From positions 39,643-103,642 of IMG/VR virus record IMGVR_UViG_3300047368_000327: 64,000 nucleotides of DNA; one strand, 5' to 3'. The notes below the pieces were generated by a model, which was given only the letters and a program-made list of their open reading frames with translations, was not told the DNA's origin and ran no database searches. Source of the stretch: a virus. Numbering within the stretch: position 1 is the first letter of the stretch; the number at the start of each line of letters is the position of its first letter. Below are positions 15,095 to 37,577 of the stretch, piece after piece. A program made the translations under genes and the position numbers.

Positions 15095-15736
15095 ATGATA
15101 TCTTACGTTAAAAATGCATACCAAAAAGCAAAAAATGTGTACGAATATAAAGCGCTACGAATACTAGAATATCTAGATAGAGAGCTAAAATATGAGGAAT
15201 CTTTAACACACTATACTGATCAAAATAAATTAATAAAACTATCAATGGAATACGAAGCATATAAATTCGAAAATGAAATACATAGCCTTAGTTCTATGCC
15301 AGAAACAGCCATCGAAGAAATTATAAGAATCAATAAAAAGATTACTGACCACACTTGGGGAGTAATACTTGAATCTGAAAAGGTTTCTGATATAAATGTA
15401 TACATAGCTCAGATGAACAAGGTGCAAATCAACGCCAGAAAAGCTAACTTTTTTGTTATTACTGATTCAGAAGAAATACTTTTAAAATTAAATGACGTTT
15501 TTAATTGGATGAATAAAATTTTTTATATTGTCCCAAATACATATAATAGTAGTATCAGCGAGGAATACAGAAGTAGCATAAATTTCCATTGCCTCAAGCA
15601 TCTGGAAAAGCATATCTCAACCCCTGGCTCCGTATACATGAATCATTTAAAGGACATGGGTGGTAGGCAAATTACAGTCCCAAGCCCCACTCGTGTCTTT
15701 TGCTTTAACTCAAAAAGACTAGTTCCCGGATCATGA
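15095..15736 (+). CDS. Hypothetical protein, first full gene of the glycan run
   Basis: The 213-residue product begins MISYVKNAYQKAKNVYEYKA and is helical and charged in its first 110 residues, then has FFVITDSEEILLKLND and a C-terminal TRVFCFNSKRL. I do not recognise a family. It overlaps the following GT-A gene by 4 bp, so it is probably part of the glycan pathway, perhaps as an accessory or divergent transferase. Confidence 0.6.
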   Translation: MISYVKNAYQKAKNVYEYKALRILEYLDRELKYEESLTHYTDQNKLIKLSMEYEAYKFENEIHSLSSMPETAIEEIIRINKKITDHTWGVILESEKVSDINVYIAQMNKVQINARKANFFVITDSEEILLKLNDVFNWMNKIFYIVPNTYNSSISEEYRSSINFHCLKHLEKHISTPGSVYMNHLKDMGGRQITVPSPTRVFCFNSKRLVPGS

Positions 15737-16662
15737 AAAGAATATCTTACATATTAGTTTCCAGAAATGACAATTACAACGGCGATTCCGTTGGGCGCTG
15801 CATCAATACGGTCAATCATGCTTGCGAGATAATTACCAGAAATAATGTCGTAGATCAGTCTGAAGTTGTATTGGTTGATTGGTGCTCCCGTAGCGGCTCT
15901 CTAAAGGAATCGATAGCCTCTCGATTAGTTCCTGAAACAAAAGGGCTTCTCAAGATTGTTACGGTTCCACCTGATATAGCAGACAAACACCAAGGAGATT
16001 CTCCTTTTTCTGAAGTTCATGCCATGAACGTTGGTTTTAGGCAAATGGAGGGAAAGCATTTTGCCAGAATAGATCAGGATACATTAATTGGCCAGCGTTT
16101 TATGGATTGGTTTTATCACGAATACGAAGTTAAGGATTATGGGTGGACGTGGCCACGAGCCGCCTTCTGTAGCCGCAGAAATTTAAGCGAAGACCAATCT
16201 CATCATTCCGTATTCAGGGATTATATATACGACCAAAAGTTAGCTATGAAAGTCGACATTTGTCACGAGCATAACCATTACAGCCGCCTCATGCCTAACG
16301 AACAGATATTTCCTTTTTATGGCGGCGCAGTAGGAGTTATGATGGTTGACAGAGATTGCTATCTTGAGCACAAAGGTTTCAACGAACAGCTGGTCTATAT
16401 GAATAGCATGGACACAGAGTTTCTTAACCGCATAGCAGCTAAAGAAGAAATATATAATTTATGTTTGGCTATTGACGGAGACTTTTATCATCAATACCAT
16501 GGTAGATCCGATGGCGCATCCAACGATACCACTCAGCCACACGCCCAGCACGAAGGAGAAAGAAAAACAAACGATTTAGATATCAGGAACAAAATGATAG
16601 ATAACCCAAACCCAGATAACTGGGGTTTATTAGATGAAGATTTAGAAATAACAAAAATATGA
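15733..16662 (+). CDS. GT-A fold glycosyltransferase (GT2-like)
   Basis: The 309-residue protein opens ISYILVSRNDNYNGDS, with EVVLVDWCSRSGSL as the second strand, and has FARIDQDT where GT-A enzymes hold the metal with DxD. FYGGAVGVMMVDRDCYLEHK and GFNEQLVYMNSMDTEFLNRI fit the acceptor-side region, where Asp-Thr-Glu replaces the usual Glu-Asp. Sugar specificity is unknown. It is coupled to both neighbours by 4-bp overlaps. Confidence 0.75.
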   Translation: MKRISYILVSRNDNYNGDSVGRCINTVNHACEIITRNNVVDQSEVVLVDWCSRSGSLKESIASRLVPETKGLLKIVTVPPDIADKHQGDSPFSEVHAMNVGFRQMEGKHFARIDQDTLIGQRFMDWFYHEYEVKDYGWTWPRAAFCSRRNLSEDQSHHSVFRDYIYDQKLAMKVDICHEHNHYSRLMPNEQIFPFYGGAVGVMMVDRDCYLEHKGFNEQLVYMNSMDTEFLNRIAAKEEIYNLCLAIDGDFYHQYHGRSDGASNDTTQPHAQHEGERKTNDLDIRNKMIDNPNPDNWGLLDEDLEITKI

Positions 16663-17510
16663 GTAACGTAATATATATAATTAACAACTTGCCTTCCGAC
16701 ACTGATTTTGCTAATCCAGGATATCAAGACGTCGCATGGGTTCCACATTGTTTAAAGTCACTAGAGAGATACTGTTCAAAAATAGGATCCGATCTCAAGA
16801 TTATATCTATGGAGGATTTTCCAGCATTCAAAGAAATTGATCAGTATAATTTTAGCTTTTATCAGAAGAGTACTTTTATAAAGATATTATTTTTGCATGA
16901 GTTTATGAAGACGGGGTACGATAAATTTGCGCTACTAGATCTAGATATGGTGGTCAGCAAAGATGCCACAGATATATTTGAAGCTCACGAAAACGACGAT
17001 TTTGTTATGGGTTATGGATTTCATCCTGCCGTAGTCAAGAAGAACGAAATCTTCCTAAAACAATACCTCAAAAGTATTCCTGAAGACGAAAACGTTTACT
17101 GGCATAATGAAAAAACCAATAGAGATATCCCTAAATACAATTTAAATTTAGGGTGTTATATCATGAGTCGCAAGGTTGTTAGCAAAATGACAAAAGTTCT
17201 ACCTGATCAATATAGTTTGGTGGATTTTTTAAAGCATCATAACTTAATCGACAATCCCGTCCTCGAAGTTCTAGGTGAAAGAAAAGATTTCATAGATCAA
17301 GATCTATATTCTTATGCATACACAAAGACAGATGTACTAGACTCCCACAAGCCTCTCGATTGGATCTGGAATGCTAACTACCAAGCCTGCTTCCAAAAAG
17401 GTGAAGATAATAAATCTTTCAACCTCTGTCATTTATGCGGAGAGGATGGAAAGCAGTTTCTTTTGGATAATCTAAGTAACCCAGAAGTAATGGATCGAAT
17501 CGATGTATAG
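16659..17510 (+). CDS. GT-A glycosyltransferase (GT8-like)
   Basis: In this 283-residue protein KFALLDLDMVVSKDATDIF supplies the DxD of GT8/glycogenin-type enzymes, with an upstream FYQKSTFIKILFLHEFM helix typical of that fold. LNLGCYIMSRK recalls the GT8 'N-x-G' strand, and CHLCGEDGKQFL near the end may hold a metal or structural Cys pair. It precedes a sulfotransferase (8-bp overlap), suggesting that transfer and sulfation are sequential. Confidence 0.7.
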   Translation: MSNVIYIINNLPSDTDFANPGYQDVAWVPHCLKSLERYCSKIGSDLKIISMEDFPAFKEIDQYNFSFYQKSTFIKILFLHEFMKTGYDKFALLDLDMVVSKDATDIFEAHENDDFVMGYGFHPAVVKKNEIFLKQYLKSIPEDENVYWHNEKTNRDIPKYNLNLGCYIMSRKVVSKMTKVLPDQYSLVDFLKHHNLIDNPVLEVLGERKDFIDQDLYSYAYTKTDVLDSHKPLDWIWNANYQACFQKGEDNKSFNLCHLCGEDGKQFLLDNLSNPEVMDRIDV

Positions 17511-18189
17511 CCACAAAGATAAATTCATATACGTTCATATTCCCAAGTCTGCAGGAACTTTTATCAAACATTATCTTCTTTCAAATATAGAAGAAGGTTA
17601 TGCAGAAAATCAAAACCAGCAGGATTATGACGATAAATATCATGTCACTTGCGAAAGATCTTTAAGCGCTATTGTTCGAGACGTTCCCGACTATAAAGAT
17701 TATTATAAATTTACAATAGTCAGAAACCCGTTTGATAGAGTCGTTTCCATGTTTTCCTATTTAGGTGGCTGGAAATTTGACTATTTCGTTGAAAACAATA
17801 TTGAATCACCAATGATGCCATATGTCCAAGAGTTTCATAAATACTATATGTTAAATGATTTCGACGGCTTTGTAACCTATGCCTACGAAGGAGGGTATAT
17901 TAAAAAGTTTCATGCTGGATATTATGAAAATTACATAGACAGGATATCGCTTAACGGCACAGTGGCTATAGATAAATTTTATAAAATGGAAAATATAAAA
18001 TCTTGCGTTTCAGATTTGAGTAAAAAGTTTAATTTTAAAAACAAGTCAGGATTTAACGATTGGCGTCAGAATAGTAGTTCAGAGTACAAGAAGAAACCTA
18101 ATTATAGGGATTATTATTCGGATTATAGCCGCGAATACATAGGAGACCATTTTCAAAGTGACCTGGAATACTTTAGATATGAGTTCTAA
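17503..18189 (+). CDS. Sulfotransferase family 2-type protein (paralogue 1 of 5)
   Basis: KFIYVHIPKSAGTFIKHYLL is the 5'-phosphosulfate-binding loop, and FTIVRNPFDRVVSMFSYL the 3'-phosphate-binding Arg/Ser motif, of PAPS-dependent carbohydrate sulfotransferases (the HNK-1/chondroitin sulfotransferase superfamily). It would move sulfate from PAPS to a sugar hydroxyl. At 228 residues it is a minimal catalytic domain, and unlike animal homologues it has no membrane anchor, implying a cytoplasmic site. No PAPS-making genes are in the window. Confidence 0.85.
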   Translation: MYSHKDKFIYVHIPKSAGTFIKHYLLSNIEEGYAENQNQQDYDDKYHVTCERSLSAIVRDVPDYKDYYKFTIVRNPFDRVVSMFSYLGGWKFDYFVENNIESPMMPYVQEFHKYYMLNDFDGFVTYAYEGGYIKKFHAGYYENYIDRISLNGTVAIDKFYKMENIKSCVSDLSKKFNFKNKSGFNDWRQNSSSEYKKKPNYRDYYSDYSREYIGDHFQSDLEYFRYEF

Positions 18190-18979
18190 ATTTGTTATAT
18201 TCGGCCAAGAGAGAGCTGGAACAACCAGCTTAATTTCTGCGCTAAATAAAAACGATAGAATAGTTCACGAGCCACTATCTTCACTTACTGGGGATTTAGA
18301 GCACAATCCTAGATACGCTCAGATAATTAAAGACCACCAGATGGATCCAGATGGCTTACCTAAATCCAAAAACATTCCATACTTTAATAAATTCAACAAC
18401 ATAGCCGAAGATTATGAAAAACTGTGGAGCTTCCTGGACTCACTGTTTAGCGTCTTTGATGGCGTAAAACATGTATGGTGTACATCCTCCGAAGAAGGTA
18501 ACGAGAATTTTCTCTCTTATTGTCAAGCTCATGGAATAAAAGTAATCTTTCAATACCGAGAAAGCGCTTTTTACCCTGCTGTTTCATGGCAGCTCGCCAA
18601 CCAAGTTCAGGTTTGGCAGCTAGGAGAAAACAAAGAATATAAGTCCACAGTGGATTCTTTTGATTATCAAGAACTAGAAGAGCCTCCTATAAAAAGAAGA
18701 ACAGCTTGGTACAAAAAATACATACCTCACTACCACTCATTGCTTCCACCAAACAGTCTCATTTCCAAATACGAAGATTTATACGGATTAGAAACATACG
18801 AGGAAAGGTTAGAGAAATTCAACTGCATAGTAGACTACTTAAATATCGAGGTTGATAAAAATAATGTTGAGAATTTTTTAGGCACAGACAGAAGAGTATT
18901 CGGCAAAAAAGCATACGACAAGATACCCAACTATCAAGAAATGTTTGATAAATATGGAGATGAGAAGATTATATTGTGA
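18179..18979 (+). CDS. Sulfotransferase-like P-loop protein (different subfamily)
   Basis: From the ATG at 18179 the product begins MSSKFVIFGQERAGTTSLIS, a PAPS-binding P-loop of the Stf0/general sulfotransferase type; the downstream VIFQYRESAFYPAVSWQLA is a candidate 3'-phosphate-binding region with the Arg kept. I prefer 18179 to a GTG at 18158 because it overlaps the previous stop by 11 bp and starts just before the motif. It is a different lineage from the five 'HIPK' paralogues. Substrate unknown. Confidence 0.7.
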   Translation: MSSKFVIFGQERAGTTSLISALNKNDRIVHEPLSSLTGDLEHNPRYAQIIKDHQMDPDGLPKSKNIPYFNKFNNIAEDYEKLWSFLDSLFSVFDGVKHVWCTSSEEGNENFLSYCQAHGIKVIFQYRESAFYPAVSWQLANQVQVWQLGENKEYKSTVDSFDYQELEEPPIKRRTAWYKKYIPHYHSLLPPNSLISKYEDLYGLETYEERLEKFNCIVDYLNIEVDKNNVENFLGTDRRVFGKKAYDKIPNYQEMFDKYGDEKIIL

Positions 18980-19863
18980 ACCATGCCGTATTCACTCATT
19001 TATTCTTTCGCCCAAACCTCTTTCATTTTGAGGAATGGTTGAAGTATCATATTGATTTTGGCGTAGACCACTTTTACTTTTACGAAAGTTCTCATTCAGG
19101 AATACCTTGTCTACTAAAAGATACAAAAAGACAAATAGATATACCCTTAGTTGGTGATATTCCGTACAGTCGTATTTATAAATACTACGACGAAATCAGG
19201 GAAAGGTATAAAGACTATTGTACTTTCATCAAATGGTTGCCAAAGGATAAAAACGGCAATTACCTAGAGCACCATCAAATTAACGCCTACGAACAAGCTA
19301 CTGCGCTCAATCATTTTTATAAAAATTATGCTAAAAAACACGACAGGGTATCGACCATAGATTGCGATGAATTTTATTATAGTAGCAAATACGATAACAT
19401 TAAAAGCTTTCTAGATAAAAATAAACAAGATATTTTGTTATTAGGTTGTAAATTTTTTGAATCTGTATTTATTAATGTCGGCAGCTTAGTAACACAAAAA
19501 ACAAAGTGTCTGGATAAACCCTCAAGGGTTGGTCCTAAGTATATCTTTAATCCTCAAAACGCAAACTTAAGATACAAGAACTCGCCTCATTTCCCTCCCA
19601 CTAAAAACAAAACTAGTGTAAATATAGAACAAGAAGATCTTTGCTTCTATCATTATAAAGTCAACGAAAATGCAAAAATATCAATAGAGCATCACGGCAA
19701 ACAAAAAATGGAATACGCAGAAGACAAATCGATGGCAGAAAAGACCCAGCATTTACAAGATTATAATTTTGTAAGTAAACCACAAATACAACAAAGCTTT
19801 ATTGACTCAAATGAAGATATATTAGGATTAGATTCTTTTAAATGGGATGAAATACAACATTAA
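18976..19863 (+). CDS. Glycosyltransferase, GT92-like (DUF23-type)
   Basis: The segment LFHFEEWLKYHIDFGVDHFY is the hallmark opening of GT92/DUF23 and related GT-A proteins, and VSTIDCDEFYY supplies the DxD. A late CFYHYKVNENAKISIEHHG gives the conserved His-rich acceptor strand. In animals GT92 enzymes are galactosyltransferases that act on fucose, which is interesting beside GDP-fucose genes, but specificity cannot be inferred from sequence. GTG start at 18976, 4-bp overlap. Confidence 0.75.
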   Translation: MNHAVFTHLFFRPNLFHFEEWLKYHIDFGVDHFYFYESSHSGIPCLLKDTKRQIDIPLVGDIPYSRIYKYYDEIRERYKDYCTFIKWLPKDKNGNYLEHHQINAYEQATALNHFYKNYAKKHDRVSTIDCDEFYYSSKYDNIKSFLDKNKQDILLLGCKFFESVFINVGSLVTQKTKCLDKPSRVGPKYIFNPQNANLRYKNSPHFPPTKNKTSVNIEQEDLCFYHYKVNENAKISIEHHGKQKMEYAEDKSMAEKTQHLQDYNFVSKPQIQQSFIDSNEDILGLDSFKWDEIQH

Positions 19864-20497
19864 AATACCGAAAGTCATTCATCAAATTTATATTGGCGAA
19901 AAACAAATCCCAGAGCAACAATCAATATGGCAAAAAACCTGGAAAGATTGTAATCCAGATTGGGAATTTATTTTTTGGGATGACGCAAAATTAAAAAATA
20001 TAGGCTTTATTAATAAAGACGCATTTAAATATTGCAAAAGCATAGCTTCAAAAGTTGATTTAATAAGGTATGAAATTATTTATAAATTTGGAGGCCTTTA
20101 TATTGATACAGACTTTGAATGTCTAAAAAGTATCGATTCATTTTTTCATGATAAAGATTTTATTGCATGCCGCCAAAACCCAAGTGGACCGACGGTTGCT
20201 AATGGTTTTATTGCCGCTACCCCTCAACACCGAATTATCGAAAAATTAATCAATGATACTCCAAAAAGATGCGTTACTCATAAATCAAAAGGTTGCGTAG
20301 AAAAGTTCGGGCCACGTTTTCTTACCGATGTTATAGATGAAATCTACGGCTCAGAATTTAAATATTCCAAAAATTTTGATCCAAAAAATATTTACCCTTA
20401 TATGTGGACAAAAAGACATAGCCTTAATGATGACTTTAAAAAGATTTACCCTGAATCATATGCGGTCCATCATTGGTCTAAAAGCTGGCAAAAATGA
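19847..20497 (+). CDS. Glycosyltransferase family 32-like (DXD sugar-binding)
   Basis: IPKVIHQIYIGEKQIPEQQ, DWEFIFWDD and SKVDLIRYEIIYKFGGLYID followed by TDFECL are the three signature blocks of GT32 (OCH1/mannosyltransferase-type) proteins, the last with the metal-binding DxD. Length (216 aa) is usual for bacterial members. Such enzymes transfer mannose, galactose or glucosamine. It overlaps the upstream gene by 17 bp and the downstream sulfotransferase by 4 bp. Confidence 0.85.
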   Translation: MKYNIKIPKVIHQIYIGEKQIPEQQSIWQKTWKDCNPDWEFIFWDDAKLKNIGFINKDAFKYCKSIASKVDLIRYEIIYKFGGLYIDTDFECLKSIDSFFHDKDFIACRQNPSGPTVANGFIAATPQHRIIEKLINDTPKRCVTHKSKGCVEKFGPRFLTDVIDEIYGSEFKYSKNFDPKNIYPYMWTKRHSLNDDFKKIYPESYAVHHWSKSWQK

Positions 20498-21075
20498 TCG
20501 ATCATAAAAATAAGTTTATTTTTATTCATATTCCCAAAACTGGGGGATCGAGTATTGAATCTCTTTTTTACCCTAATATTATAACGAAAGCGGGCATATG
20601 CAAAGATATCGAAGACAAGCATTCCACATTAGAATCTCTTTTGAAAAATGGAGGGATCGAGTTGAGTGATTTTTTCTCTTTTTCTTTTGTTAGAAATCCA
20701 TGGGATAAAGTTTTGTCTCATTATTTATTTTTTATTAAAGGCGGCTTTGATCACAGTGGATCTTTCTTTAATTTTGTTGAATATTATTGCGCTACAGACC
20801 ATAAGGGATGGAAAAATAATGATTTTTTACCTCAGTTTGATTATTTATCCCTAGATGATAGTTTGGCTATTAATTTTATTGGAAAATTCGAAAATCTTCA
20901 AGAAGACTTCGATATCGTTTGTGACAAAATTGGAATTCCAAGAAAACAACTTCCGCACACAAACAAAACTAACCACAAACACTACACCGAATACTACGAT
21001 GATGAAACTCGAGAAATTGTTGCGCAAAAGTACGCTAAGGACATTGAGTATTTCGGTTATGAATTTGAACAATGA
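20494..21075 (+). CDS. Sulfotransferase family 2-type protein (paralogue 2 of 5)
   Basis: KFIFIHIPKTGGSSIESLFY binds the 5'-phosphosulfate of PAPS and FSFVRNPWDKVLSHYLFF the 3'-phosphate. This 193-residue protein ends with the block EIVAQKYAKDIEYFGYEFE, which also closes the paralogues at 33.6 and 35.4 kb in similar form (a YxxDIxYFGY-type C-terminus). It lies between a GT32-like and a fucosyltransferase-like gene, with 4-bp overlaps on both sides. Confidence 0.85.
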   Translation: MIDHKNKFIFIHIPKTGGSSIESLFYPNIITKAGICKDIEDKHSTLESLLKNGGIELSDFFSFSFVRNPWDKVLSHYLFFIKGGFDHSGSFFNFVEYYCATDHKGWKNNDFLPQFDYLSLDDSLAINFIGKFENLQEDFDIVCDKIGIPRKQLPHTNKTNHKHYTEYYDDETREIVAQKYAKDIEYFGYEFEQ

Positions 21076-21935
21076 ATAATTATTATTACTTTTCTTGGGA
21101 TGCTGGTTGGGGCGACACCTTATGGCACTTAACCAATGCATTAATCCACTGCGAAAACTCGAATCAAGACATGCTTATAGATCTTCGCGGACACTGGTCT
21201 AGCAAGGGTGACAAAAATTTATTCAATGAATACTTTTCTTCCATAGATACTAATATAAACATTATAACTAATGAAGAATCTATAGATCAATTAAAAAAAG
21301 ATTCAGAAAAACACACAAATAAAACTGTAAAAATTAAAAACCCTTTAAAATCAAAAGAAGATACCGAGTTATTTTACAACACGTTTTCTCGCATTAAGCC
21401 CAGTGAATCAGTAGCTAACACTGCCAAAGATATAGTGCGCGAAAAATTCAAAGGCAACTACATGGTCGGAGTTCACGCCAGAATGTCCAATGGAGAAGTT
21501 AAGAGTCGATTTGAAGGGGCTCGCCCAATGAAAGACGCTGTATTGTTTTATAAAGAAAGGATTGACGACATACTCTTTAACGCTCCTCGCGCCTTCCTTA
21601 AATCCTGCAAAGATTATAAATTTTTTATAGCTTCTGACTCGAGAAAATTCGTAGACATATTCAAGGATCAGTTCCCAAACACCGTTTCAATAGACAGGTA
21701 TTTTGCCCCTCCGGGTTGCGGCACCGGCCACGAAATAGGCGAAGGCTCAACGGAGGAGCAGATAAAATTAGAAGAAGTTTACGGCAAGACAAAAATAGCC
21801 AAAGAAGCTCTTGTTGATTTTTACTTATTACAGGAGACTAATTTTCTATTCAAAAATTTTAGCAGATTTAATGAGTTTTGCCTATACAAGGGCATACCAA
21901 ATTTCCATATTAATTTTCAGGAGAAGTGTTATTAA
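21072..21935 (+). CDS. Fucosyltransferase-like protein (NodZ/FUT8-type GT-B), copy 1
   Basis: The 287-residue protein starts with a glycine-rich WDAGWGDTLWHLTNALIHC and has MVGVHARMSNGE, the His-x-Arg loop that contacts GDP-fucose in GT23/65/68 fucosyltransferases, then FIASDSRKF and ALVDFYLLQETNFLFKNFS, matching the donor-binding C-terminal region. It would use GDP-fucose made by the gmd/fcl products. Acceptor unknown. GT family assignment is by motif only. Confidence 0.65.
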   Translation: MNNYYYFSWDAGWGDTLWHLTNALIHCENSNQDMLIDLRGHWSSKGDKNLFNEYFSSIDTNINIITNEESIDQLKKDSEKHTNKTVKIKNPLKSKEDTELFYNTFSRIKPSESVANTAKDIVREKFKGNYMVGVHARMSNGEVKSRFEGARPMKDAVLFYKERIDDILFNAPRAFLKSCKDYKFFIASDSRKFVDIFKDQFPNTVSIDRYFAPPGCGTGHEIGEGSTEEQIKLEEVYGKTKIAKEALVDFYLLQETNFLFKNFSRFNEFCLYKGIPNFHINFQEKCY

Positions 21936-22574
21936 ATGATTAGTCACAGGTATAAATGCATATTCCTTCATATCCCTAAAGCTGCTGGCACTTCAATTGA
22001 GAGGCTTTTATCTGGAGCCGACATAGATATATCTAAAAAAGTTCCAAGGAAACGTGGCTTTTCTCATTTTTTAAACGAGCACCTGGACTATTATGTCTTC
22101 TCTGTTGTTCGTAATCCATATAACCGTTTCGTATCTGCATGGAAGTGGGGCGAGTTAAAATTCGAAAAAGAAGGCGGCCTACCGTTCTATAATAAAGAAA
22201 GATCAGTATCATTCGAGGAATATATTTTACTAACTACTGATATCGATTATCGCAAAAACAATAAAAACCTATGGAGCGAATACGACGAATACCATACGTT
22301 GCCACAATTTGAATTTTTCCCTCATTTAAATGGTGGTCATTATTTCACAGACACAATAAAGCCTGAATTTACTTGTGATTTTATTGGTCGCTTTGAAAAC
22401 CTGCACGAAGACCTCAATAAAGTTTGGTCTAGTATTGGTATAAATCAGTTTGACTTACCTCATGCATATAATTCAAAAACGTTTAAAAAAGAAGCCATGT
22501 GGGCGAGCGAGCTAAAAGACAAAATATATAATTATTACAAAAAAGATTTTGAATTATTCAACTATGAACCTTAA
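21936..22574 (+). CDS. Sulfotransferase family 2-type protein (paralogue 3 of 5)
   Basis: CIFLHIPKAAGTSIERLLSG and FSVVRNPYNRFVSAWKWG are the two PAPS-binding motifs. Downstream FIGRFENLHEDLNKVWSSIG is shared with the other paralogues (F-I-G-R-x-E-N-L). The protein ends KDFELFNYEP. An AGGAG sequence about 14 nt upstream of the ATG could serve as ribosome-binding site, since this gene abuts rather than overlaps its predecessor. Confidence 0.85.
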   Translation: MISHRYKCIFLHIPKAAGTSIERLLSGADIDISKKVPRKRGFSHFLNEHLDYYVFSVVRNPYNRFVSAWKWGELKFEKEGGLPFYNKERSVSFEEYILLTTDIDYRKNNKNLWSEYDEYHTLPQFEFFPHLNGGHYFTDTIKPEFTCDFIGRFENLHEDLNKVWSSIGINQFDLPHAYNSKTFKKEAMWASELKDKIYNYYKKDFELFNYEP

Positions 22575-28734: not shown

Positions 28735-28735
28735 T

Positions 28736-29257
28736 ATGAAATCAAATATCAGAATCATACAGGCTTCTGGAGAATTTACTGGAAGCACTTTACTAATCAA
28801 CTATCTTGTTGGGTTTTTTTGTCCCGATTCTCCTGCTGTCTTTGGTGTAGACTCTAACATCGAAGATAATCTTGTTACCAAAACTCACTATTTAAATCTT
28901 GATGGTTTTGAAAGAAGGTTTGGGTCTAGATATGAATTATTTTTTGTAAGCTCTTCTCGTGAAAACGATCCACTGAGGCCAAAAAGAGTTTTCAGAAATT
29001 TAGATGGCAAATATTTATCGAGAGATAATGTCCTCATTATAGACTTTAATAAATTACGTGATACAGATTATATATTTGACGCTTTTTTAAATTTTTTCCC
29101 TAAAAGTTTATTGCCCAATCAAAGCATTGGATTGATTAAGAAACAAATGCTCACAAGAATCGACAAAATGAATAAGAGATATACTGAAATCTCCACACTA
29201 CCCAGGTCTTATGTTGACCCAATATACGGGCTACATGGCTCTCACAGAAAATCTTAA
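28736..29257 (+). CDS. Sulfotransferase-like P-loop protein, short
   Basis: IRIIQASGEFTGSTLLINYL resembles a PAPS-binding P-loop (G-x-x-x-S/T-G-S-T), and VTKTHYLNLDGFERRFG with FFVSSSREND recalls the 'K-T-H ... S-x-R' region of sulfotransferases. At 173 residues it is shorter than the other members, and the Arg/Ser 3'-phosphate motif is weak. It may be a divergent or partly lost enzyme. It abuts its neighbours with 1-2 bp gaps. Confidence 0.5.
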   Translation: MKSNIRIIQASGEFTGSTLLINYLVGFFCPDSPAVFGVDSNIEDNLVTKTHYLNLDGFERRFGSRYELFFVSSSRENDPLRPKRVFRNLDGKYLSRDNVLIIDFNKLRDTDYIFDAFLNFFPKSLLPNQSIGLIKKQMLTRIDKMNKRYTEISTLPRSYVDPIYGLHGSHRKS

Positions 29258-29259
29258 CA

Positions 29260-29922: not shown

Positions 29923-30646
29923 AGCATCCATAATACTATCTTCTTATAACAACTTGCTCTCACTAGAGTTAAGCATTGAAAGCCTGCGCTATCAAACAGA
30001 AAAAGACTTCGAGATTATTATAGCGGACGATGGCTCAACAGATGGCACTATTGAATATTTAAAAAAAGAAGGTATAAAATATTTCAGCCGCCCAAACGAA
30101 GGCTACAGGTTGGCTTACATCTGGAATCGGGGCGCCAAACTAGCAACTGGAGATAGATTCATTTTTGGTAATTCGGATATCATATCTCACCCTAAAAGAG
30201 TTGAAGAGCATTTGTCATTTGATGATAATTTAGTCGCTGGAATTTACCCATCAATACCTATTGATCATGTAAACACTATAACAAAACAAAAGATAAAATA
30301 TGATTTTTGGTCGATAGATTTAATAGCCACAGAAGACAGAAGAAAAGATTATATTTCTGGTGTTAAAAAACCGCAGTTAAATCATGGCAAAAAAATACCG
30401 CCGCGATACATGTATGGAGGCAATTGGTCATGCCCTGCTGATATTTTTAAAAAATTGGGAGGGCTAGATGAACAGTTTAAAGGCTGGGGAGGTGAAGATT
30501 TTGATTTTGCTCGACGAGCTCAACTAGATGGTCATGATATAATGCTTAATATTAGTTGTATTGGGTATCATCTTGATCATGAGACGATCAACCGAGACCA
30601 AACTCGGTCAATAGGTAAAGGTTATTTTAACCAAAAATGGTCATGA
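29915..30646 (+). CDS. Glycosyltransferase family 2 (with GT27-type C-terminal block)
   Basis: From the ATG at 29915 the protein begins MPKASIILSSYNNLLSLELS, followed by FEIIIADDGSTDGTIEYL, textbook GT2. IFGNSDIISH is the metal-binding region and FKGWGGEDFDFARRAQLDG the C-terminal 'W-G-G-E-D' acceptor motif of galactosyl- and N-acetylgalactosaminyltransferases. I chose 29915 over upstream in-frame starts because it directly precedes the conserved strand and has GGGGGAAG about 10 nt upstream. 243 residues. Confidence 0.85.
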   Translation: MPKASIILSSYNNLLSLELSIESLRYQTEKDFEIIIADDGSTDGTIEYLKKEGIKYFSRPNEGYRLAYIWNRGAKLATGDRFIFGNSDIISHPKRVEEHLSFDDNLVAGIYPSIPIDHVNTITKQKIKYDFWSIDLIATEDRRKDYISGVKKPQLNHGKKIPPRYMYGGNWSCPADIFKKLGGLDEQFKGWGGEDFDFARRAQLDGHDIMLNISCIGYHLDHETINRDQTRSIGKGYFNQKWS

Positions 30647-31443
30647 AACCTCAAGTTGTAGACGCCTTCATGTTTAATAACGAACTCGATGTTCTTAATT
30701 TCAGACTGCATGAATTAAACGATTATGTAGACAAATTCGTTATTTATGAAAACTCATGGACTTTTAGCGGCAATAAAAAACCACTTTACTTCGAGGAAAA
30801 CAAAGAAATGTTTTCTAAATTTTCCGATAAGATTGTTCACGTAAAAAGCAACACTCGAGGGAAAAACAACTGGAAAAGCGAGTATTCTCAAAGGCACGAA
30901 GTTCTAGCAAAAGGAGTCTCCTCTCTTGATTTAAATAATAAAGATGTTGTATCTTTCTGTGATTTAGATGAAATTGTGGACCCCGAACTGATCTCAAACT
31001 ACAAACAAGAGCTGCCTCAAGATGCACCTCTTTTAGTTCGCCCGCACTGGTTTAACGTGTCCTGGGATTGCTATTTAGGAGCGTGGCAACATCACAGTAT
31101 TATTTTTTCTTACTGGGGAGAGCTCCAAAAGAGAATGTCTCACTGGAAGGGTATGCAGTGTGGTTGGCGCTGGGATCATCCTAAATTTACGCAGCCCACC
31201 AAAAAGAAAGATTTATCTGGATGGCATGTATCCTGGTTCATGAAGCCCGATGATTTAATTATCAAACTAAAAAGCTTTGCCCATAACGGGGAAGATTGGG
31301 TGACGGAAATACTTGAAGACATAAACTTGATAAACCAAAGGATTAAGGCCGGAAAAGATGTTACTGGAAAATTCAACAGCCAACAATTCAACTCCTCCTA
31401 CCCTGCCTACAAAGACTTAGTAAGTTATGGATTTAAAAAATAA
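30643..31443 (+). CDS. Glycosyltransferase family 17-like
   Basis: VVDAFMFNNELDVLNFRLHE followed by YVDKFVIYENSWTFSG and KKPLYFEE is the N-terminal signature of GT17 (beta-1,4-mannosyl-glycoprotein N-acetylglucosaminyltransferase family). VVSFCDLDEIVDPELI carries the DxD, and GWHVSWFM the late conserved His. The 266-residue length suits bacterial and viral members. The ATG at 30643 forms an ATGA overlap with the previous stop; an ATG at 30637 is also possible. Confidence 0.85.
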   Translation: MKPQVVDAFMFNNELDVLNFRLHELNDYVDKFVIYENSWTFSGNKKPLYFEENKEMFSKFSDKIVHVKSNTRGKNNWKSEYSQRHEVLAKGVSSLDLNNKDVVSFCDLDEIVDPELISNYKQELPQDAPLLVRPHWFNVSWDCYLGAWQHHSIIFSYWGELQKRMSHWKGMQCGWRWDHPKFTQPTKKKDLSGWHVSWFMKPDDLIIKLKSFAHNGEDWVTEILEDINLINQRIKAGKDVTGKFNSQQFNSSYPAYKDLVSYGFKK

Positions 31444-32167
31444 AACCGCATCAATCTGCGCCTGCGCCAAAAACGTGGAAGAGAATTTGCCGTTATCAAT
31501 TTCCAAGATTGAAATGATTTCTTCTGCATTCAAAGAAGTTAAAATTTTTATTTTTGAAAATGACTCAACAGATAATACATTATCAATACTTAAAGACTGG
31601 GCTAAAAAAAATCAATCCGTAAAAATTATATCCGAAAGCGGTTTAAAATTAAAAGCTACAAAAGGCTGGTACAAGAGAATTGAAGCGTTAATGATTGGAA
31701 GAAATAGACTGCTAGAAGAATCAAAAATCTACAACCCAGATTATTACATACCAATTGACATGGATGAAGTGATCAGCGGCTTGACATTGGACGGGTTCTT
31801 AAGTTCTTTTGATCTAGATTTGGATTGGGCTATGATAGGAGCCAACCAGACTGGGCATTATTATGACCTTTGGGTTTTGAGAACTTTTGATGATTGGATG
31901 AATGATGATTGCTGGGAAGAATGCGTACCTAAACATGGTTATGATTTTTGCATAGAATCCAAAAAGCGCAATATACCAACAGACTCAGAACCTATAGAGG
32001 TATTGTCATGCTTTGGCGGACTAGGTATATACAAATTTGAATACGTAAAAGATTGCAACTATAACAGGGCTGGCCTTCGCACCGTTGAGCACACATACCT
32101 CCACAATCAAATGAGAAAAAAACATAATGCTCGCTTTTTTATTAATCCCAAAATGATAGGATATTGA
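31427..32167 (+). CDS. GT-A glycosyltransferase (GT69/CAP59-like pattern)
   Basis: SICACAKNVEENLPLSISKI, then IFIFENDSTDNTLSILKDWA and YIPIDMDEVISGLT form the ordered blocks of a GT-A enzyme in which 'E-N-D-S-T-D-x-T' replaces the usual 'D-D-G-S-x-D'. This resembles fungal CAP59-type mannosyltransferases. GGLGIYKFEYV and TVEHTYLHNQM supply acceptor-side conserved positions. 246 residues; overlaps the upstream gene by 17 bp. Confidence 0.65.
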   Translation: MDLKNKTASICACAKNVEENLPLSISKIEMISSAFKEVKIFIFENDSTDNTLSILKDWAKKNQSVKIISESGLKLKATKGWYKRIEALMIGRNRLLEESKIYNPDYYIPIDMDEVISGLTLDGFLSSFDLDLDWAMIGANQTGHYYDLWVLRTFDDWMNDDCWEECVPKHGYDFCIESKKRNIPTDSEPIEVLSCFGGLGIYKFEYVKDCNYNRAGLRTVEHTYLHNQMRKKHNARFFINPKMIGY

Positions 32168-32817
32168 TGAAGAAAATTTTTAAAGTTTTTGTATGTTGCC
32201 ATAAATACATCCACAGAGTTGAAGAGATAAAAGCTCGCGTTGATAAATGGAATCTTGGCGATTATTTAATTTTTGTTGGGGGCGAAGAAGAAAAACAGCT
32301 AAAAGAAAATGTTATTCAATTAAAGTGCCGCGATTTATACGAAGACCTGCCAGAAAAAATGTTTGCTATATATAAATATTTAGCCGCCAACAATTATGCA
32401 GATCAATATGATTATTTCTGGAAGATAGATGATGATGTTGATTTTATGCGCTGGAATAACGAGCGTAACCAAGCATTAATAGATTCGCTAGAAGGGTTGG
32501 ATTATGCAGGCTTTAAATTAAAGCGGGGAGAAGGCAAGCGGGGCTGGCACATAGGAAGAGTTAGAGAAGATTCTCCTTGGTACAATAAAAAATACAACGG
32601 CAAGTATGTTGATTGGATTGACGGCGGAACAACTTATTTTTTAAGTTCTAAATCGTTAAATAAATTCAAATACTTTTATGAGCTTTCAGAAATTAGAAAT
32701 TACGATATATACGAAGACCTTGCGGTAGCTAAATATCTAGAAAAATGCAACATATTACCAATAGAAATAAACCCATGGCAAGATAAACCCGTGTTAAAAT
32801 TTAATATAAATAAATGA
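32167..32817 (+). CDS. Galactosyltransferase-like protein (GT31-type)
   Basis: LPEKMFAIYKYLAANNYADQ then YFWKIDDDVDF matches GT31, in which a K-x-DDD motif binds metal. VDWIDGGTTYFLSSKSL is the 'G-G-x-x-Y-x-L-S' block, and NYDIYEDLAVAKYLEKC the catalytic 'E-D-x-x-x-A/G' loop. GT31 enzymes add beta-1,3-galactose or N-acetyl-hexosamines. The ATG at 32167 shares one base with the preceding TGA. Confidence 0.75.
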   Translation: MKKIFKVFVCCHKYIHRVEEIKARVDKWNLGDYLIFVGGEEEKQLKENVIQLKCRDLYEDLPEKMFAIYKYLAANNYADQYDYFWKIDDDVDFMRWNNERNQALIDSLEGLDYAGFKLKRGEGKRGWHIGRVREDSPWYNKKYNGKYVDWIDGGTTYFLSSKSLNKFKYFYELSEIRNYDIYEDLAVAKYLEKCNILPIEINPWQDKPVLKFNINK

Positions 32818-33590
32818 AAATCTTCAACAAAAGCAAAGAAGGCCTTTTTGGCTCTTCAATGAATTGGATTAATGCCAGATTACCCTATTTGTATAAAAAT
32901 AAAATTTATCCATCCTGGGATATAAGAAATATCAATCACGGTAACCCCTCAGACCAAGACCGCATCACCCCTCATATTATTGAGCCAAAAAAACAAAACG
33001 CAAATCCAGGTGAAACTGTAAACCTGCTAGACATAGAAAGATATCAGTATACCGACTTCAATGAGGCAAGCTTTTACTTTAATCATTATTTTGAATTAAA
33101 TCAAAGCATTGTGGATTTGTCTTTTGAAATTTGCGAACCTTTCAATAATTGCCTTGGTGTGCATTTTAGAGGCAACGATAAATCCAGGAAAAATGATAAG
33201 GAGAATATTCCCATAGACAATCAGTCCTATATTAAAAAAATAAAACTTTTTGCCGATAAGCATGATTTTGAAAGTGTTTTTGTTTTATCTGATGAAGTTG
33301 CCCTAAAGGATTTTTTAAAAAACGAAATTTTAAAAATGTTTAATGTCCCTGTGTTTTTTACTAATCTTGAACCAGTTTTTCATTTATCCCAAAAATCGCT
33401 CGATAACAAGCTGGAATTGACAAAAAACGCTGTCGCAGAAATGCTCGTTCTTTCTCGATGCAAGTATGTGCTTAAAAATCAATCCGCATTTTCGAGTTGG
33501 GCAAAGATTATCAATCCTGAAATTAAAATGTACAGAACCAGCAAGTGCAAGCAAGACTGGTTTCCTGATTATTATTTGCCAGAATTATGA
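32814..33590 (+). CDS. Fucosyltransferase-like protein (NodZ/FUT8-type GT-B), copy 3
   Basis: In this 258-residue protein CLGVHFRGNDKS is the His-x-Arg-Gly loop of O- and alpha-1,6-fucosyltransferases, and NAVAEMLVLSRCKYVLKNQS followed by AFSSWAK is the donor-binding C-terminal motif (the 'D/E-x-x-x-L-S-x-x' region). VFVLSDE fits the middle strand. It is the clearest of the three fucosyltransferase-like genes. It is coupled to a sulfotransferase gene by a 4-bp overlap. Confidence 0.72.
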   Translation: MKIFNKSKEGLFGSSMNWINARLPYLYKNKIYPSWDIRNINHGNPSDQDRITPHIIEPKKQNANPGETVNLLDIERYQYTDFNEASFYFNHYFELNQSIVDLSFEICEPFNNCLGVHFRGNDKSRKNDKENIPIDNQSYIKKIKLFADKHDFESVFVLSDEVALKDFLKNEILKMFNVPVFFTNLEPVFHLSQKSLDNKLELTKNAVAEMLVLSRCKYVLKNQSAFSSWAKIINPEIKMYRTSKCKQDWFPDYYLPEL

Positions 33591-34183
33591 TTTCTCACAA
33601 GCATAAAGCTTTGTTTTTTCATATGCCCAAATGTGGGGGGACTTCCATTGAGCATGTTTTAGGATCTTGCGGCTTTCAGAAGAGTCCTAGAGAAGCTTTT
33701 TATCAGAATCAACACTCTGTTAGTTTATTTGACCAAGCCAAAAAAGAATACGCTGATCATATTGATGATTATTATAAATTTTGCTTTGTTCGCAATCCTT
33801 GGGACCGAATGGTTTCGGTTTGGAAAAAGCATGCTCTTCCTTTTTCTGAGTCGGGAAGATTTCCAAACATTAATGACTTCAATACTTTTATAAGAAAGTA
33901 TCCATTGCCCCAAAAAAATATTTTATGGCATGCGCGTTCTCAATTTTTTCAATTAAAAAATCCTTCTTTCTATAACTTTATCGGAAGATATGAAAATATA
34001 GAAGAGCACTTATTTTTTGTTTTGGATAGTATCGGTGCCACTAATAATATATCGCTCCCGAAGTTAAATCAATCCAGCCACAATCATTATAGTAATTATT
34101 ATAACGAATATTCTGTAAAGAAAGTAGGGGAGATGTACAAAGAAGAAATTGATTATTTTGGCTATCAGTTTATTTATCAATGA
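33587..34183 (+). CDS. Sulfotransferase family 2-type protein (paralogue 4 of 5)
   Basis: ALFFHMPKCGGTSIEHVLGS and KFCFVRNPWDRMVSVWKKH are the PAPS-binding motifs. FIGRYENIEEHLFFVLDSIG and KLNQSSHNHYSNYYNEYS match paralogue 2 (KTNHKHYTEYY at the same place), and EEIDYFGYQF closes the protein. 198 residues, no membrane segment. It directly follows the clearest fucosyltransferase-like gene, consistent with sulfation of a fucosylated product. Confidence 0.88.
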   Translation: MISHKHKALFFHMPKCGGTSIEHVLGSCGFQKSPREAFYQNQHSVSLFDQAKKEYADHIDDYYKFCFVRNPWDRMVSVWKKHALPFSESGRFPNINDFNTFIRKYPLPQKNILWHARSQFFQLKNPSFYNFIGRYENIEEHLFFVLDSIGATNNISLPKLNQSSHNHYSNYYNEYSVKKVGEMYKEEIDYFGYQFIYQ

Positions 34184-34881: not shown

Positions 34882-34883
34882 AA

Positions 34884-35426
34884 ATGAGCTTAGGAAACAA
34901 AGGAACTTTACAATTTATTAAAGACGATGCGGTTTGCGTGGAAGTTGGAGTATGGAAGGGCGACTTATCTAGGCATATTGCCCAATTACCCATTTCTCAA
35001 CTTTACTTGATTGACCCCTGGCAAAGTATCAATGACGTAGAAGGGCGCCTCCATAATACCGAGCAAAAAGAACTAGATGATATTTACAACACAGTAAAAA
35101 GAAGGTTTTTCTTCAACAAAAAGGTAAAATTAATACGAAAATTTTCCGCTGATGCAATGTCAGACATCAAAGACGGCACTGTTGATTGGATTTATATTGA
35201 CGGCAATCACAGTTATGAATTTGTAAAAGAAGATCTTAATGGCTGGTGGCCAAAACTTAAAAGTGGCGGCTTTTTATGCGGCGACGATTACATTGACGGA
35301 AAATATCAAGTCGAAGAGCTGCAGTTCGGAATCGTTGAAGCGGTTGATGAGTTCAGAGAAGAACGTGAGCATGAAATCAATCATTCAGAATTAATCAAAG
35401 ACCAATTCGTTTTTCAGAAAAAATGA
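34884..35426 (+). CDS. Class I SAM-dependent methyltransferase (copy A)
   Basis: VCVEVGVWKGDLSRHIAQL is the SAM-binding motif I, LYLIDPWQSI the acidic motif II, and DWIYIDGNHSYEFVKEDLNG with LKSGGFLCGDDY the following strands, the pattern of the Methyltransf_24 family. At 180 residues it is a lone catalytic domain. It is clearly paralogous to the gene at 36.0 kb, with the same motif order and similar ends (KDQFVFQKK and KHQFVLTKK). AAGGAT lies upstream of its ATG. Confidence 0.85.
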   Translation: MSLGNKGTLQFIKDDAVCVEVGVWKGDLSRHIAQLPISQLYLIDPWQSINDVEGRLHNTEQKELDDIYNTVKRRFFFNKKVKLIRKFSADAMSDIKDGTVDWIYIDGNHSYEFVKEDLNGWWPKLKSGGFLCGDDYIDGKYQVEELQFGIVEAVDEFREEREHEINHSELIKDQFVFQKK

Positions 35427-36016
35427 TTTCAGAAAAGTTTCAATGTGTATTTATTCATATTCCTAAATGCGCAGGTAGCTCAATCAATCTTGATTTAAAA
35501 TTAACCTCCGTAGGGTTCTCGGGGCATAGTCCGGCATCTTGCCATTTTGATTACATCAATCAAGGCTATTTTTCTTTTACTTTTATTCGCAATCCTTACG
35601 ATAGAGTCGCCTCTGCTTATAGGTATTTCCAAAAATTAGTTCCGGGCCATAGGTGGTACAAAAGAAACAGCATCATAGCTGACCTGGCCAATGAGCTAGA
35701 CTTTAGTGGTTTTGTTAGCCACATAAATGACTTTAAGCGATTAATGAAAAGAGAAGAGGGTTCTTATGAATCTGGAATTCATTTTCAACCTTTCGCTTAT
35801 TTCCTAGATGAGCCTGTTGACTTTATTGGCCGCCATGAAAATATACAGCATGATTATTTTAGCATTCGGTCTAAATTAAAACTCCCCATAAAGAGCCTAC
35901 CCAAAACAAATTCTACCAATAATTCAAAGTATCAAGAATTATATACAGAAAATACTCAAAGCATAGTGTATAATACATACAAAGAAGATATAAAAAAATA
36001 TAATTATAAATTTTAA
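35423..36016 (+). CDS. Sulfotransferase family 2-type protein (paralogue 5 of 5)
   Basis: CVFIHIPKCAGSSINLDLKL and FTFIRNPYDRVASAYRYF are the PAPS-binding motifs; FIGRHENIQHDYFSIRSKL and PKTNSTNNSKYQELYTE follow as in the other paralogues. 197 residues. It sits between two paralogous methyltransferase genes and overlaps the first by 4 bp. Confidence 0.88.
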   Translation: MISEKFQCVFIHIPKCAGSSINLDLKLTSVGFSGHSPASCHFDYINQGYFSFTFIRNPYDRVASAYRYFQKLVPGHRWYKRNSIIADLANELDFSGFVSHINDFKRLMKREEGSYESGIHFQPFAYFLDEPVDFIGRHENIQHDYFSIRSKLKLPIKSLPKTNSTNNSKYQELYTENTQSIVYNTYKEDIKKYNYKF

Positions 36017-36021
36017 ATATT

Positions 36022-36588
36022 ATGCCATTACCATACGATTTTGAACTAGACGATTCCAGACTTTCTCTTCTGGAAAAAATAAAACCAGGAGATGCTTGTG
36101 CAGAGATCGGTGTATTTAGGGGGGACTTTTCCGAATATATGCTCAAGATGGATCCGTCAGAGCTTAATTTGGTTGACCCATGGATCAGCATAATGGACAT
36201 TCCAGCTAGATGGCATGCCATACCTCAAGAGGAAATGGATTCGATAAAAAACGAAGTAAAAAATAAATTTAATTCAGATTCGAGGGTTAACATTTTAGAA
36301 AAATATTCGATTGATGCCCTAGATGACTTCGAGGATGATTCCCTAGATTGGATATACCTTGACGCGAATCACTCCTACTCTTTCATACAGCAAGATCTCG
36401 AGAACTGGTGGAGTAAGCTTAAATCTAATGGCACTTTATGCGGAAACGCTTACCAAGATGACGACGCTCAAATTCGACTACTTGATTTTGGCGTCATACC
36501 AGCTGTCGATTCATTTTTAGAAGACTTTTTTGATGAAATAGAAAATTTTGAAATTATAAAACATCAATTCGTATTAACAAAAAAATGA
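36022..36588 (+). CDS. Class I SAM-dependent methyltransferase (copy B)
   Basis: CAEIGVFRGDFSEYMLKM (motif I), LNLVDPWISI (motif II) and LDWIYLDANHSYSFIQQDL match copy A. Two positions differ: copy A has CGDDY where copy B has CGNAY, replacing a likely metal-binding Asp-Asp. This suggests different acceptors or reduced activity in copy B. 188 residues; the start has no overlap with the upstream gene, and the end overlaps the epimerase by 4 bp. Confidence 0.82.
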   Translation: MPLPYDFELDDSRLSLLEKIKPGDACAEIGVFRGDFSEYMLKMDPSELNLVDPWISIMDIPARWHAIPQEEMDSIKNEVKNKFNSDSRVNILEKYSIDALDDFEDDSLDWIYLDANHSYSFIQQDLENWWSKLKSNGTLCGNAYQDDDAQIRLLDFGVIPAVDSFLEDFFDEIENFEIIKHQFVLTKK

Positions 36589-37577
36589 AAATATTAGTTG
36601 GAGGAGCAGGCGGCTTTATTGCCGGTTATTTAGTTAAAGATTTATTAGCGCAAGGACATGAAGTTATTACTGCCGATATAAAACCGGCAGAACAATGGTA
36701 TCAGACTTTTAATAATGCAGAAAATCATAGTGATTGCGATCTTGGCGAAAAGCATCACTGTTATAACCTATCAAAAGGTGTTGACAGAATTTATAATCTT
36801 GCCTGCAATATGGGGGGCATGGGATTCATTCAAAACAATCATGCCCTCTGCATGGAGTCTGTATTGATTCAAGCGCATATGCTTATGGCGGCTCGAGACA
36901 ACGGCGTAAAAGAAATTTTATATAGCTCTTCTGCTTGCATCTACCCTCAAGAAATTCAATCTGACATTAAAGATGCGGCCTCTCAAGGATTAAAAGAACA
37001 TACTGCCTATCCAGCTAACCCAGAAGATGGTTATGGTTGGGAAAAATTGTTCAGTGAAATTCTTACTCATTATTACGGAGAGGATTTTGGCATTGATTCT
37101 AGGGTCTGCAGATACCATAACGTTTATGGCCCTTATGGTACTTGGCGTGGCGGACGAGAGAAAGCTCCTGCTGCAATTTGCCGTAAAGTTATTGAGGCAA
37201 AAATGAGCGGCAAGCATGATATTGAAATTTGGGGAGATGGAGAACAAACCCGCTCCTTCATGTATATAGATGATTGCGTTACCGGAATGGATTTAATGTG
37301 GTCAAAAGGAGACTCTCGCCCACTGAACCTTGGTAGCGACCAGATGGTATCAATTAACCAGTTAGTCGATATTGCCGAAAATATTGGCAACGTAAAACTT
37401 AAAAGAAATTACAATCTTGATGCGCCACAGGGTGTTCGTGGTCGCAATAGCGACAACGAAATGATTAAAGAGGTTTTAGGCTGGGCGCCATCTATCACAC
37501 TAGAAGATGGATTAGAAAAAACCTATTCTTGGATTTACGACCAGATGCAAAATTGCAGCGATTCCTCAGGCTATTAA
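36585..37577 (+). CDS. GDP-mannose 3,5-epimerase-like protein
   Basis: The extended SDR begins LVGGAGGFIAGYLVKDLLAQ. CNMGGMGFIQNNHALCM, SSACIYPQE, YPANPEDGYGWEKLFSE and RYHNVYGPYGTWRGGREKAP are the diagnostic GME blocks, with the catalytic Tyr-x3-Lys present as YGWEK. GME converts GDP-mannose to GDP-L-galactose (and GDP-L-gulose). At 330 residues it is family length. The enzyme is best known from plants and algae (vitamin C pathway) and some bacteria. Together with gmd/fcl it gives the phage two fates for GDP-mannose. Confidence 0.88.
   Translation: MKILVGGAGGFIAGYLVKDLLAQGHEVITADIKPAEQWYQTFNNAENHSDCDLGEKHHCYNLSKGVDRIYNLACNMGGMGFIQNNHALCMESVLIQAHMLMAARDNGVKEILYSSSACIYPQEIQSDIKDAASQGLKEHTAYPANPEDGYGWEKLFSEILTHYYGEDFGIDSRVCRYHNVYGPYGTWRGGREKAPAAICRKVIEAKMSGKHDIEIWGDGEQTRSFMYIDDCVTGMDLMWSKGDSRPLNLGSDQMVSINQLVDIAENIGNVKLKRNYNLDAPQGVRGRNSDNEMIKEVLGWAPSITLEDGLEKTYSWIYDQMQNCSDSSGY

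What the first reader, a model, noticed from the sequence alone, without database searches (positions are those of the whole stretch)
15095..37577. Phage-encoded island for a sulfated, fucosylated, methylated glycan
Seen: about 17 glycosyltransferase-like genes, seven sulfotransferase-like genes, several methyltransferases and a GME-like epimerase in one near-continuous overlapping run; a second cluster at 0.4-8.1 kb adds gmd, fcl, an epimerase, a short UDP-glucose dehydrogenase, an FkbM methyltransferase and a pyruvyltransferase. Known: gmd+fcl make GDP-L-fucose and family-2 sulfotransferases use PAPS. Inferred: together they build an acidic heteropolysaccharide on the phage particle or the host surface. 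A tailed phage with this many sulfotransferases next to RNR and replication genes is not a system I can match; the closest idea is the self-encoded glycosylation of chloroviruses.
Basis: partly seen in the sequence, partly recalled or inferred. Interest (0 to 1): 0.9.

Follow-up and report, generated by a model that had tools for sequence, protein, structure and literature searches.

The report
Phage island building a sulfated glycan
A marine tailed phage, probably of flavobacteria, carries an exchangeable, selection-maintained block of about 30 genes for building and sulfating a complex sugar chain; similar sugar islands exist in cyanophages, but this one adds a whole battery of sulfotransferases, which is new and untested.

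Summary
Of 30 ORFs at 15095-37577, Pfam places above curated cut-offs 5 sulfotransferases (PF03567), 10 glycosyltransferases from about nine families, 2 methyltransferases and 1 epimerase; 4 more GTs are weak, and 2 further sulfotransferases and 3 GTs rest on motifs only. The epimerase is a GDP-mannose 3,5-epimerase; 0.4-8.1 kb adds gmd and fcl. The contig is not chimeric: six long independent IMG/VR contigs carry the same island with the same end blocks. About 14 genes form a constant frame; the rest are swapped for other GTs and sulfotransferases. dN/dS is 0.03-0.23 where measurable. In one relative the replication genes are about 50% identical but the island 79% and RNR 86%, so the module moves between phage lineages. 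Only 2 of 270 glycan-cluster ORFs have a membrane stretch: no flippase, polymerase or lipid-carrier enzyme. Best reading: the phage makes a sulfated, fucose/L-galactose glycan in the cytosol, most likely for its own virion; host-surface remodelling is the main rival. Isolated cyanophages (S-SCSM1) already have nrdAB + gmd-fcl-GME + NodZ islands without annotated sulfotransferases, so this is a new variant of a known kind. Host: probably Flavobacteriia.

The parts
407..8086 (+). cluster A: sugar-nucleotide and transferase genes (GT2, unassigned ORF, GT47-like, FkbM methyltransferase, pyruvyltransferase, gmd, fcl, epimerase, short UDP-sugar dehydrogenase)
   Evidence: Pfam; NCBIfam; PDB
4315..5367 (+). 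gmd, GDP-mannose 4,6-dehydratase
   Evidence: PF16363 1e-102; TIGR01472 5e-96, below equivalog cut-off; 76-86% conserved in G001, G002, G004, G005, G019
5364..6320 (+). fcl, GDP-L-fucose synthase
   Evidence: PDB 1bsv 6e-102; NF047922 1e-127, below equivalog cut-off
6339..7250 (+). NDP-sugar epimerase/decarboxylase-type SDR, exact substrate unresolved
   Evidence: PDB 4zrm 2e-46; TIGR01179 below cut-off; 81-91% conserved in six relatives
7247..8086 (+). short UDP-sugar dehydrogenase (279 aa), no C-terminal domain
   Evidence: PF03721/PF00984; conserved 74-78% at about 280 aa in G001, G003, G004, G019
8198..14041 (+). RNR NrdA (8198-10675) and NrdB (13028-14041); these move with the glycan module
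   Evidence: PHROGs; identity 86% to G019 versus 51% for replication genes
15095..18979 (+). constant left end of island B: unknown 15095, GT-like 15733, GT8-like 16659, sulfotransferase 17503, sulfotransferase-like 18158
   Evidence: present in order in G001-G005 and G019, 66-91% identical
17503..18189 (+). sulfotransferase (PF03567), PAPS motifs PKSAGTF and VRNPFDR
   Evidence: 2e-14; motifs
18976..20497 (+). variable slot: GT92/GT2-type 18976 and Gly_transf_sug (GT32-like) 19847
   Evidence: presence patchy
20494..21075 (+). sulfotransferase (PF03567)
   Evidence: 7e-20; PKTGGSS and VRNPWDK; 112 relatives in viral contigs
21072..21935 (+). NodZ-type fucosyltransferase
   Evidence: PF05830 1.6e-12
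21936..22574 (+). sulfotransferase (PF03567)
   Evidence: 8e-16
22549..23310 (+). glycosyltransferase (Nucleotid_trans, GT77-like)
   Evidence: PF03407 8e-17; 84-86% in six relatives
24449..26191 (+). GHKL ATPase embedded in island, constant member; role unknown
   Evidence: PF13589 6.5e-6; orthologue or fragment in all six relatives
26208..28734 (+). GT8-like 26208 (weak), GT90 26969, NodZ-type 27874
28736..29257 (+). sulfotransferase-like P-loop protein, motif only
   Evidence: sequence; no Pfam hit
29260..32817 (+). GTs: 29260 (GT-like, unassigned), 29834 GT2, 30637 GT17, 31427 CAP59/GT2, 32164 GT31-like
33587..34183 (+). sulfotransferase (PF03567)
   Evidence: 8e-17; synonymous divergence from G001 only 0.11
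34884..37577 (+). right end of island: methyltransferase 34884, sulfotransferase 35423, methyltransferase 36022, GDP-mannose 3,5-epimerase 36585
   Evidence: PDB 8sg0 2e-95; 35423 and 36585 in all six relatives, methyltransferases in most
37789..38223 (+). conserved right-flank gene of unknown function
   Evidence: 77-86% in six relatives; no Pfam or PHROG hit
39599..53303 (+). phage replication block: UvsX-like recombinase, DnaB-like helicase, primase, exonuclease, split DnaE-type polymerase, ATP-dependent protease
   Evidence: PHROGs; tblastn

Best explanation
This is a functioning, horizontally exchanged glycan-synthesis module of a lytic-looking tailed phage. Shown or strongly implied by family: gmd+fcl make GDP-L-fucose, GME makes GDP-L-galactose, a UDP-sugar dehydrogenase probably makes a uronic acid donor; cytosolic transferases build an oligosaccharide; PAPS-dependent sulfotransferases (PAPS from the host, no synthesis gene seen) sulfate it; methyl- and pyruvyltransferases cap it. 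A constant set of transferases would lay down a common core and exchangeable ones the variable outer residues. Inferred: because all enzymes look soluble and no lipid-carrier, flippase, polymerase or export gene accompanies them, the glycan is most likely built on the phage's own structural proteins in the cytosol, giving an acidic, strain-specific sugar coat on tail or capsid.
For: Families. Intact PAPS motifs in all five PF03567 proteins. Same island and end blocks in six independent long contigs; replacement genes in the slots are again sulfotransferases (10 of 61), GTs, epimerases, pyruvyltransferases. dN/dS 0.03-0.23 where measurable. Module transfer: G019 core 50-52%, island 75-80%, RNR 85-90%, Mann-Whitney p 3e-4 to 6e-4. 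Membrane stretches in 2 of 270 glycan-cluster ORFs, one of them antisense. Tail genes in the same record. In G019 and L013 the island lies directly downstream of a tail-type gene (54855 homologue).
Against: No virion glycan has been measured. No acceptor protein or sequon identified. Soluble GTs could equally decorate a host lipid-linked precursor. Several island proteins have no assignable family. Relatives of this lineage without PF03567 exist (11 of 24 records, some fragments), so sulfation is not essential to the lineage. Host PAPS supply is assumed. The membrane scan was a hydropathy rule, not a trained predictor.
Confidence: 0.5

Rival explanations
1. Host-surface remodelling: the enzymes decorate host LPS, capsule or exopolysaccharide precursors during infection, blocking superinfection or grazing, as proposed for cyanophage LPS clusters.
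For: Published reading of P-SSM2-type and S-SCSM1 clusters (PMC7824862, PMC9602691); S-SCSM1 has nrdAB, gmd-fcl-GME, NodZ, GTs and MTs together. Strain-variable slots fit antigenic variation. 61 of 301 Flavobacteriaceae genomes have a PF03567 protein over cut-off.
Against: No membrane, lipid-carrier, flippase or polymerase gene in about 270 cluster ORFs of seven phages; more transferases than a usual repeat unit needs (general knowledge).
Confidence: 0.35
2. DNA hypermodification: the GTs glycosylate modified bases to evade restriction.
For: Phage GTs often do this (general knowledge); GTs of PHROG 2170 lie in the left arm across most of the lineage.
Against: Sulfotransfer_2, GME, pyruvyl- and sugar methyltransferases are carbohydrate enzymes; far too many GT families for base modification; no base-hydroxylating gene was seen among scanned proteins.
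Confidence: 0.05
3. Assembly chimera or recently captured bacterial locus without phage function.
For: GT/sulfotransferase runs occur in bacterial surface loci.
Against: Same junctions in independent contigs from different samples; purifying selection; GC 0.33-0.39 like the rest; GME is rare and at most 49% identical in other sampled Flavobacteriaceae genomes.
Confidence: 0.02

Closest known systems
Synechococcus phage S-SCSM1 and related T4-like cyanophage glycan islands (also P-SSM2, S-SSM7)
   Same: nrdA-nrdB nearby, gmd, fcl, GDP-mannose 3,5-epimerase (about 41-43% identical), NodZ and other GTs, methyltransferases in one run (PMC9602691, PMC7824862)
   Different: Fewer GTs; no sulfotransferase annotated in the stretches read; T4-like cyanophages, whereas here a DnaE-type polymerase and lambda-type long-tail genes; the 15733 and 26969 GTs have no homologue in the phage collection
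Mimivirus-group and chlorovirus autonomous virion glycosylation
   Same: Gene clusters with many GTs, methyl- and pyruvyltransferases, sugar-nucleotide genes, sulfate-metabolism genes; constant core with virus-specific outer sugars (PMC9614988)
   Different: Eukaryotic viruses, no homology tested; here the target is not known; there sulfate-metabolism enzymes such as APS kinase, here sulfotransferases
Single phage sulfotransferases (OM43-type phage genomes, S-SRM01, DLP_6)
   Same: Sulfotransferase-fold genes in phages (PMC10580990, which calls their function unclear)
   Different: One or few genes in the reports seen; here 5 in the record and up to 11 in relatives

Membership tests
Cyanophage-type phage glycan island (S-SCSM1/P-SSM2) | Run of GTs with sugar-nucleotide enzymes in a tailed phage genome | tested here: met
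Cyanophage-type phage glycan island (S-SCSM1/P-SSM2) | gmd, fcl and GME together with NodZ and nrdAB nearby | tested here: met
Cyanophage-type phage glycan island (S-SCSM1/P-SSM2) | T4-like cyanophage backbone (Kyanoviridae) | tested here: not met
   DnaE-type polymerase and lambda-type tail genes; DnaB-like helicase at most about 25% identical to the phage records listed
Autonomous virion glycosylation (chlorovirus/mimivirus kind) | Virus-encoded sugar-nucleotide enzymes plus soluble GTs | tested here: met
Autonomous virion glycosylation (chlorovirus/mimivirus kind) | Constant core set plus virus-specific variable transferases | tested here: met
   gene content; glycan itself not seen
Autonomous virion glycosylation (chlorovirus/mimivirus kind) | Glycan demonstrated on a virion protein | not testable with these tools
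   needs mass spectrometry
Wzx/Wzy or ABC-exported surface polysaccharide locus | Lipid-carrier transferase, flippase, polymerase or exporter (membrane proteins) | tested here: not met
   no polytopic sense-strand ORF in either cluster of seven phages
Sulfotransfer_2 (PF03567) | Profile score above cut-off and PAPS 5' and 3' motifs | tested here: met
   five proteins
Sulfotransfer_2 (PF03567) | Same, for 18158 and 28736 | tested here: inconclusive
   P-loop-like motif only; no profile or significant PDB match
GDP-mannose 3,5-epimerase | Best match to GME far above other SDRs, with SSACIYP, YGxEKL and GGREKAPAA segments | tested here: met
   2e-95 versus 4e-25 for next kind

The most novel reading that the evidence does not exclude
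A prokaryotic virus autonomously makes a sulfated, fucose/L-galactose-containing glycan coat for its own virion in the bacterial cytosol, with a constant core and strain-specific outer sulfation and glycosylation, swapped between phage lineages as a mobile module that includes its own ribonucleotide reductase.
Probability: 0.4. Interest if true: 0.85.

Novelty: new variant of a known kind. Interest (0 to 1): 0.62.

Why it matters
Sulfated glycans are a hallmark of marine algae and animals; no sulfated phage glycan turned up in the literature searched, and the function of phage sulfotransferases is described as unclear (PMC10580990). This module names the likely pathway (fucose, L-galactose, PAPS), gives matched sets of phages with and without it, and shows that the glycan genes move as a unit apart from the replication genes, so a role in adsorption, superinfection exclusion or virion protection can be tested directly.

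Tried and rejected
Chimeric contig: rejected (independent contigs). Close cultured phage by DNA or helicase: none. Structure of 15095: AlphaFold model too poor (pLDDT 44). Structure search of 18158: no significant match; a sulfotransferase (StaL) is only rank 5 at E 0.05, so the assignment stays at motif level. hhalign of 15733, 29260 and 34180 against the window GT2: nothing. PHROG label 'tail sheath' for 54855: doubted, because the left arm carries lambda-type long-tail proteins (tape measure PF10145, PF05939, PF13550). Serine/threonine or sequon counts in virion proteins: uninformative. A sulfotransferase-fucosyltransferase fusion ORF in G019: the GT11 half is below cut-off and frame-broken, so not used. 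Marine-versus-freshwater link of sulfotransferases: sample habitat was not available, so not claimed. Two paper look-ups (mycobacteriophage virion glycosylation, Prochlorococcus phage genomes) were not held.

Full report
SETTING. The window is the last 64 kb of a 103,642-base IMG/VR virus record, which may be incomplete. It is a tailed phage: tape measure of 3322 aa (PF10145), PF05939 and PF13550 tail proteins in the left arm outside the window, a minor tail protein, tail fibres at 59624 and 61674, plus RNR, UvsX-like recombinase, DnaB-like helicase, primase, exonuclease and a DnaE-type polymerase. The tail genes look lambda-type (long flexible tail), although PHROGs labels 54855 'tail sheath'. 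No close cultured relative exists in the phage collection, but 197 viral-contig stretches encode a related helicase.

OBSERVATION. The island at 15095-37577 has 30 same-strand ORFs. Above curated cut-offs: five PF03567 sulfotransferases, ten GTs (GT92/GT2, Gly_transf_sug, NodZ twice, Nucleotid_trans, GT90, GT2, GT17, CAP59/GT2, GT31-type), two methyltransferases, one epimerase and one GHKL ATPase; four further GTs are weak and seven ORFs have no usable family match. All five sulfotransferases keep the PAPS 5' loop (PKxxGT/S) and the RNP 3' motif. The epimerase is a GDP-mannose 3,5-epimerase: 2e-95 against GME structures, next kind 4e-25. Cluster A (407-8086) holds gmd, fcl (6e-102 to GDP-fucose synthase), an epimerase, a short UDP-sugar dehydrogenase, an FkbM methyltransferase and a pyruvyltransferase. 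So GDP-L-fucose and GDP-L-galactose are the predicted donors; PAPS must come from the host.

NOT A CHIMERA; A MODULE. Ten long IMG/VR records were fetched and mapped. Six (G001-G005, G019) carry island B with the same end blocks (15095-15733-16659-17503-18158 and 35423...36585-37789) and the same internal landmarks (21072, 21936, 22549, 24449, 29260, 29834, 32164). The remaining slots differ; 61 ORFs not or only poorly matched to the window are again mostly glycan genes: 10 sulfotransferases, 5 Nucleotid_trans, epimerases, GT47, GT25, GT61, pyruvyltransferases, a UDP-galactopyranose mutase and one sulfatase. Records G006-G009 lack island B, and some of them keep a gmd-containing cluster; G007-G009 also lack PF03567.

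SELECTION AND TRANSFER. Between the window and G001, dN/dS of island genes is 0.03-0.23 wherever dS is not saturated, and dS inside the island is low (0.1-0.8 for many genes) while most replication genes are saturated, which points to recent recombination inside the island. In G019 the replication genes are 50-52% identical to the other six phages, the island anchors 75-80% and RNR 85-90% (p 3e-4 to 6e-4). The glycan module, apparently with RNR, has therefore crossed between lineages. Sulfotransferase arrays also occur in other phage contigs: 33 records, selected because they encode a relative of 20494, have 1-11 copies, and 19 of them lack the lineage helicase, though some are fragments.

WHERE THE GLYCAN GOES. 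Of 270 ORFs in both clusters of seven phages only two have a membrane-like stretch, one antisense. There is no lipid-carrier transferase, flippase, polymerase or exporter. This favours cytosolic glycosylation of virion proteins, but soluble GTs acting on a host precursor remain possible; cyanophage clusters have been read that way (PMC7824862, PMC9602691). I give virion about 0.5 and host surface about 0.35.

HOST. Starts lack Shine-Dalgarno sites (8 of 66, background 11%), as in Bacteroidota (general knowledge). Of 11 helicase relatives in GTDB contigs, four lie in Flavobacteriaceae/Flavobacteriales MAGs (two of them in one MAG), the others are scattered over other phyla; one flavobacterial MAG holds both the replication contig (80% helicase) and the right end of the island (93% GME). 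Binning errors are possible. Sulfotransferases are found in 61 of 301 Flavobacteriaceae genomes over cut-off, at most 7 per genome; GME in only 5 of 300 besides that MAG, at most 49% identical.

NOVELTY. The kind is known: S-SCSM1 has nrdAB, gmd, fcl, GME, NodZ, GTs and MTs together. New here are the sulfotransferase array, the larger GT set, a different phage lineage and the evidence for module-level transfer. Nothing has been tested biochemically.

Noticed in passing
window 24449-26191: GHKL ATPase with an acidic EEPEPE repeat, not a glycan enzyme, yet a constant island member (70-92% in five relatives, split in a sixth) with its own promoter-like motif upstream.
   Followed up: partly
window 8198, 24449, 38238, 41154 (about 15 bases upstream): GTGTAWWAT motif directly upstream of starts: 4 of 88 starts against 0.09 expected, and enriched in most relatives; possibly a phage promoter with very short leaders.
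   Followed up: partly
window starts overall: No Shine-Dalgarno enrichment (8 of 66 versus 11% background).
   Followed up: yes
window 45399-46574: 391-aa protein with four membrane-like stretches and a coiled middle, the only polytopic sense-strand protein found in these phages; present in all seven island-bearing records, absent from G006-G009.
   Followed up: no
window 11103-12302: Papain-type C1 protease between NrdA and NrdB (3e-17); papain-like proteins also sit in some mimivirus glycan clusters (PMC9614988).
   Followed up: no
window 46611-50878: DNA polymerase split into a 275-aa N-terminal piece and an 858-aa DnaE-type piece separated by an exonuclease gene.
   Followed up: no
L209 8801-10186 (G004 record 68801-70186): A sulfatase-family gene (4e-50; sequence) inside the island of one relative: a phage that may both add and remove sulfate.
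   Followed up: no
G003 record 27001-36636 and G005 record 12908-21463: A second array of sulfotransferases far from island B, with four in a row in G003.
   Followed up: no
record 32762-38836 (left of window), minus strand: GT-B type enzymes (GT9-like, GT1-like with DUF4214, PHROG 2170) in an operon mostly kept across the lineage, candidates for the initiating step.
   Followed up: partly
window 61883-62773, minus strand: 296-aa open frame antisense to a tail-fibre gene, probably spurious.
   Followed up: no
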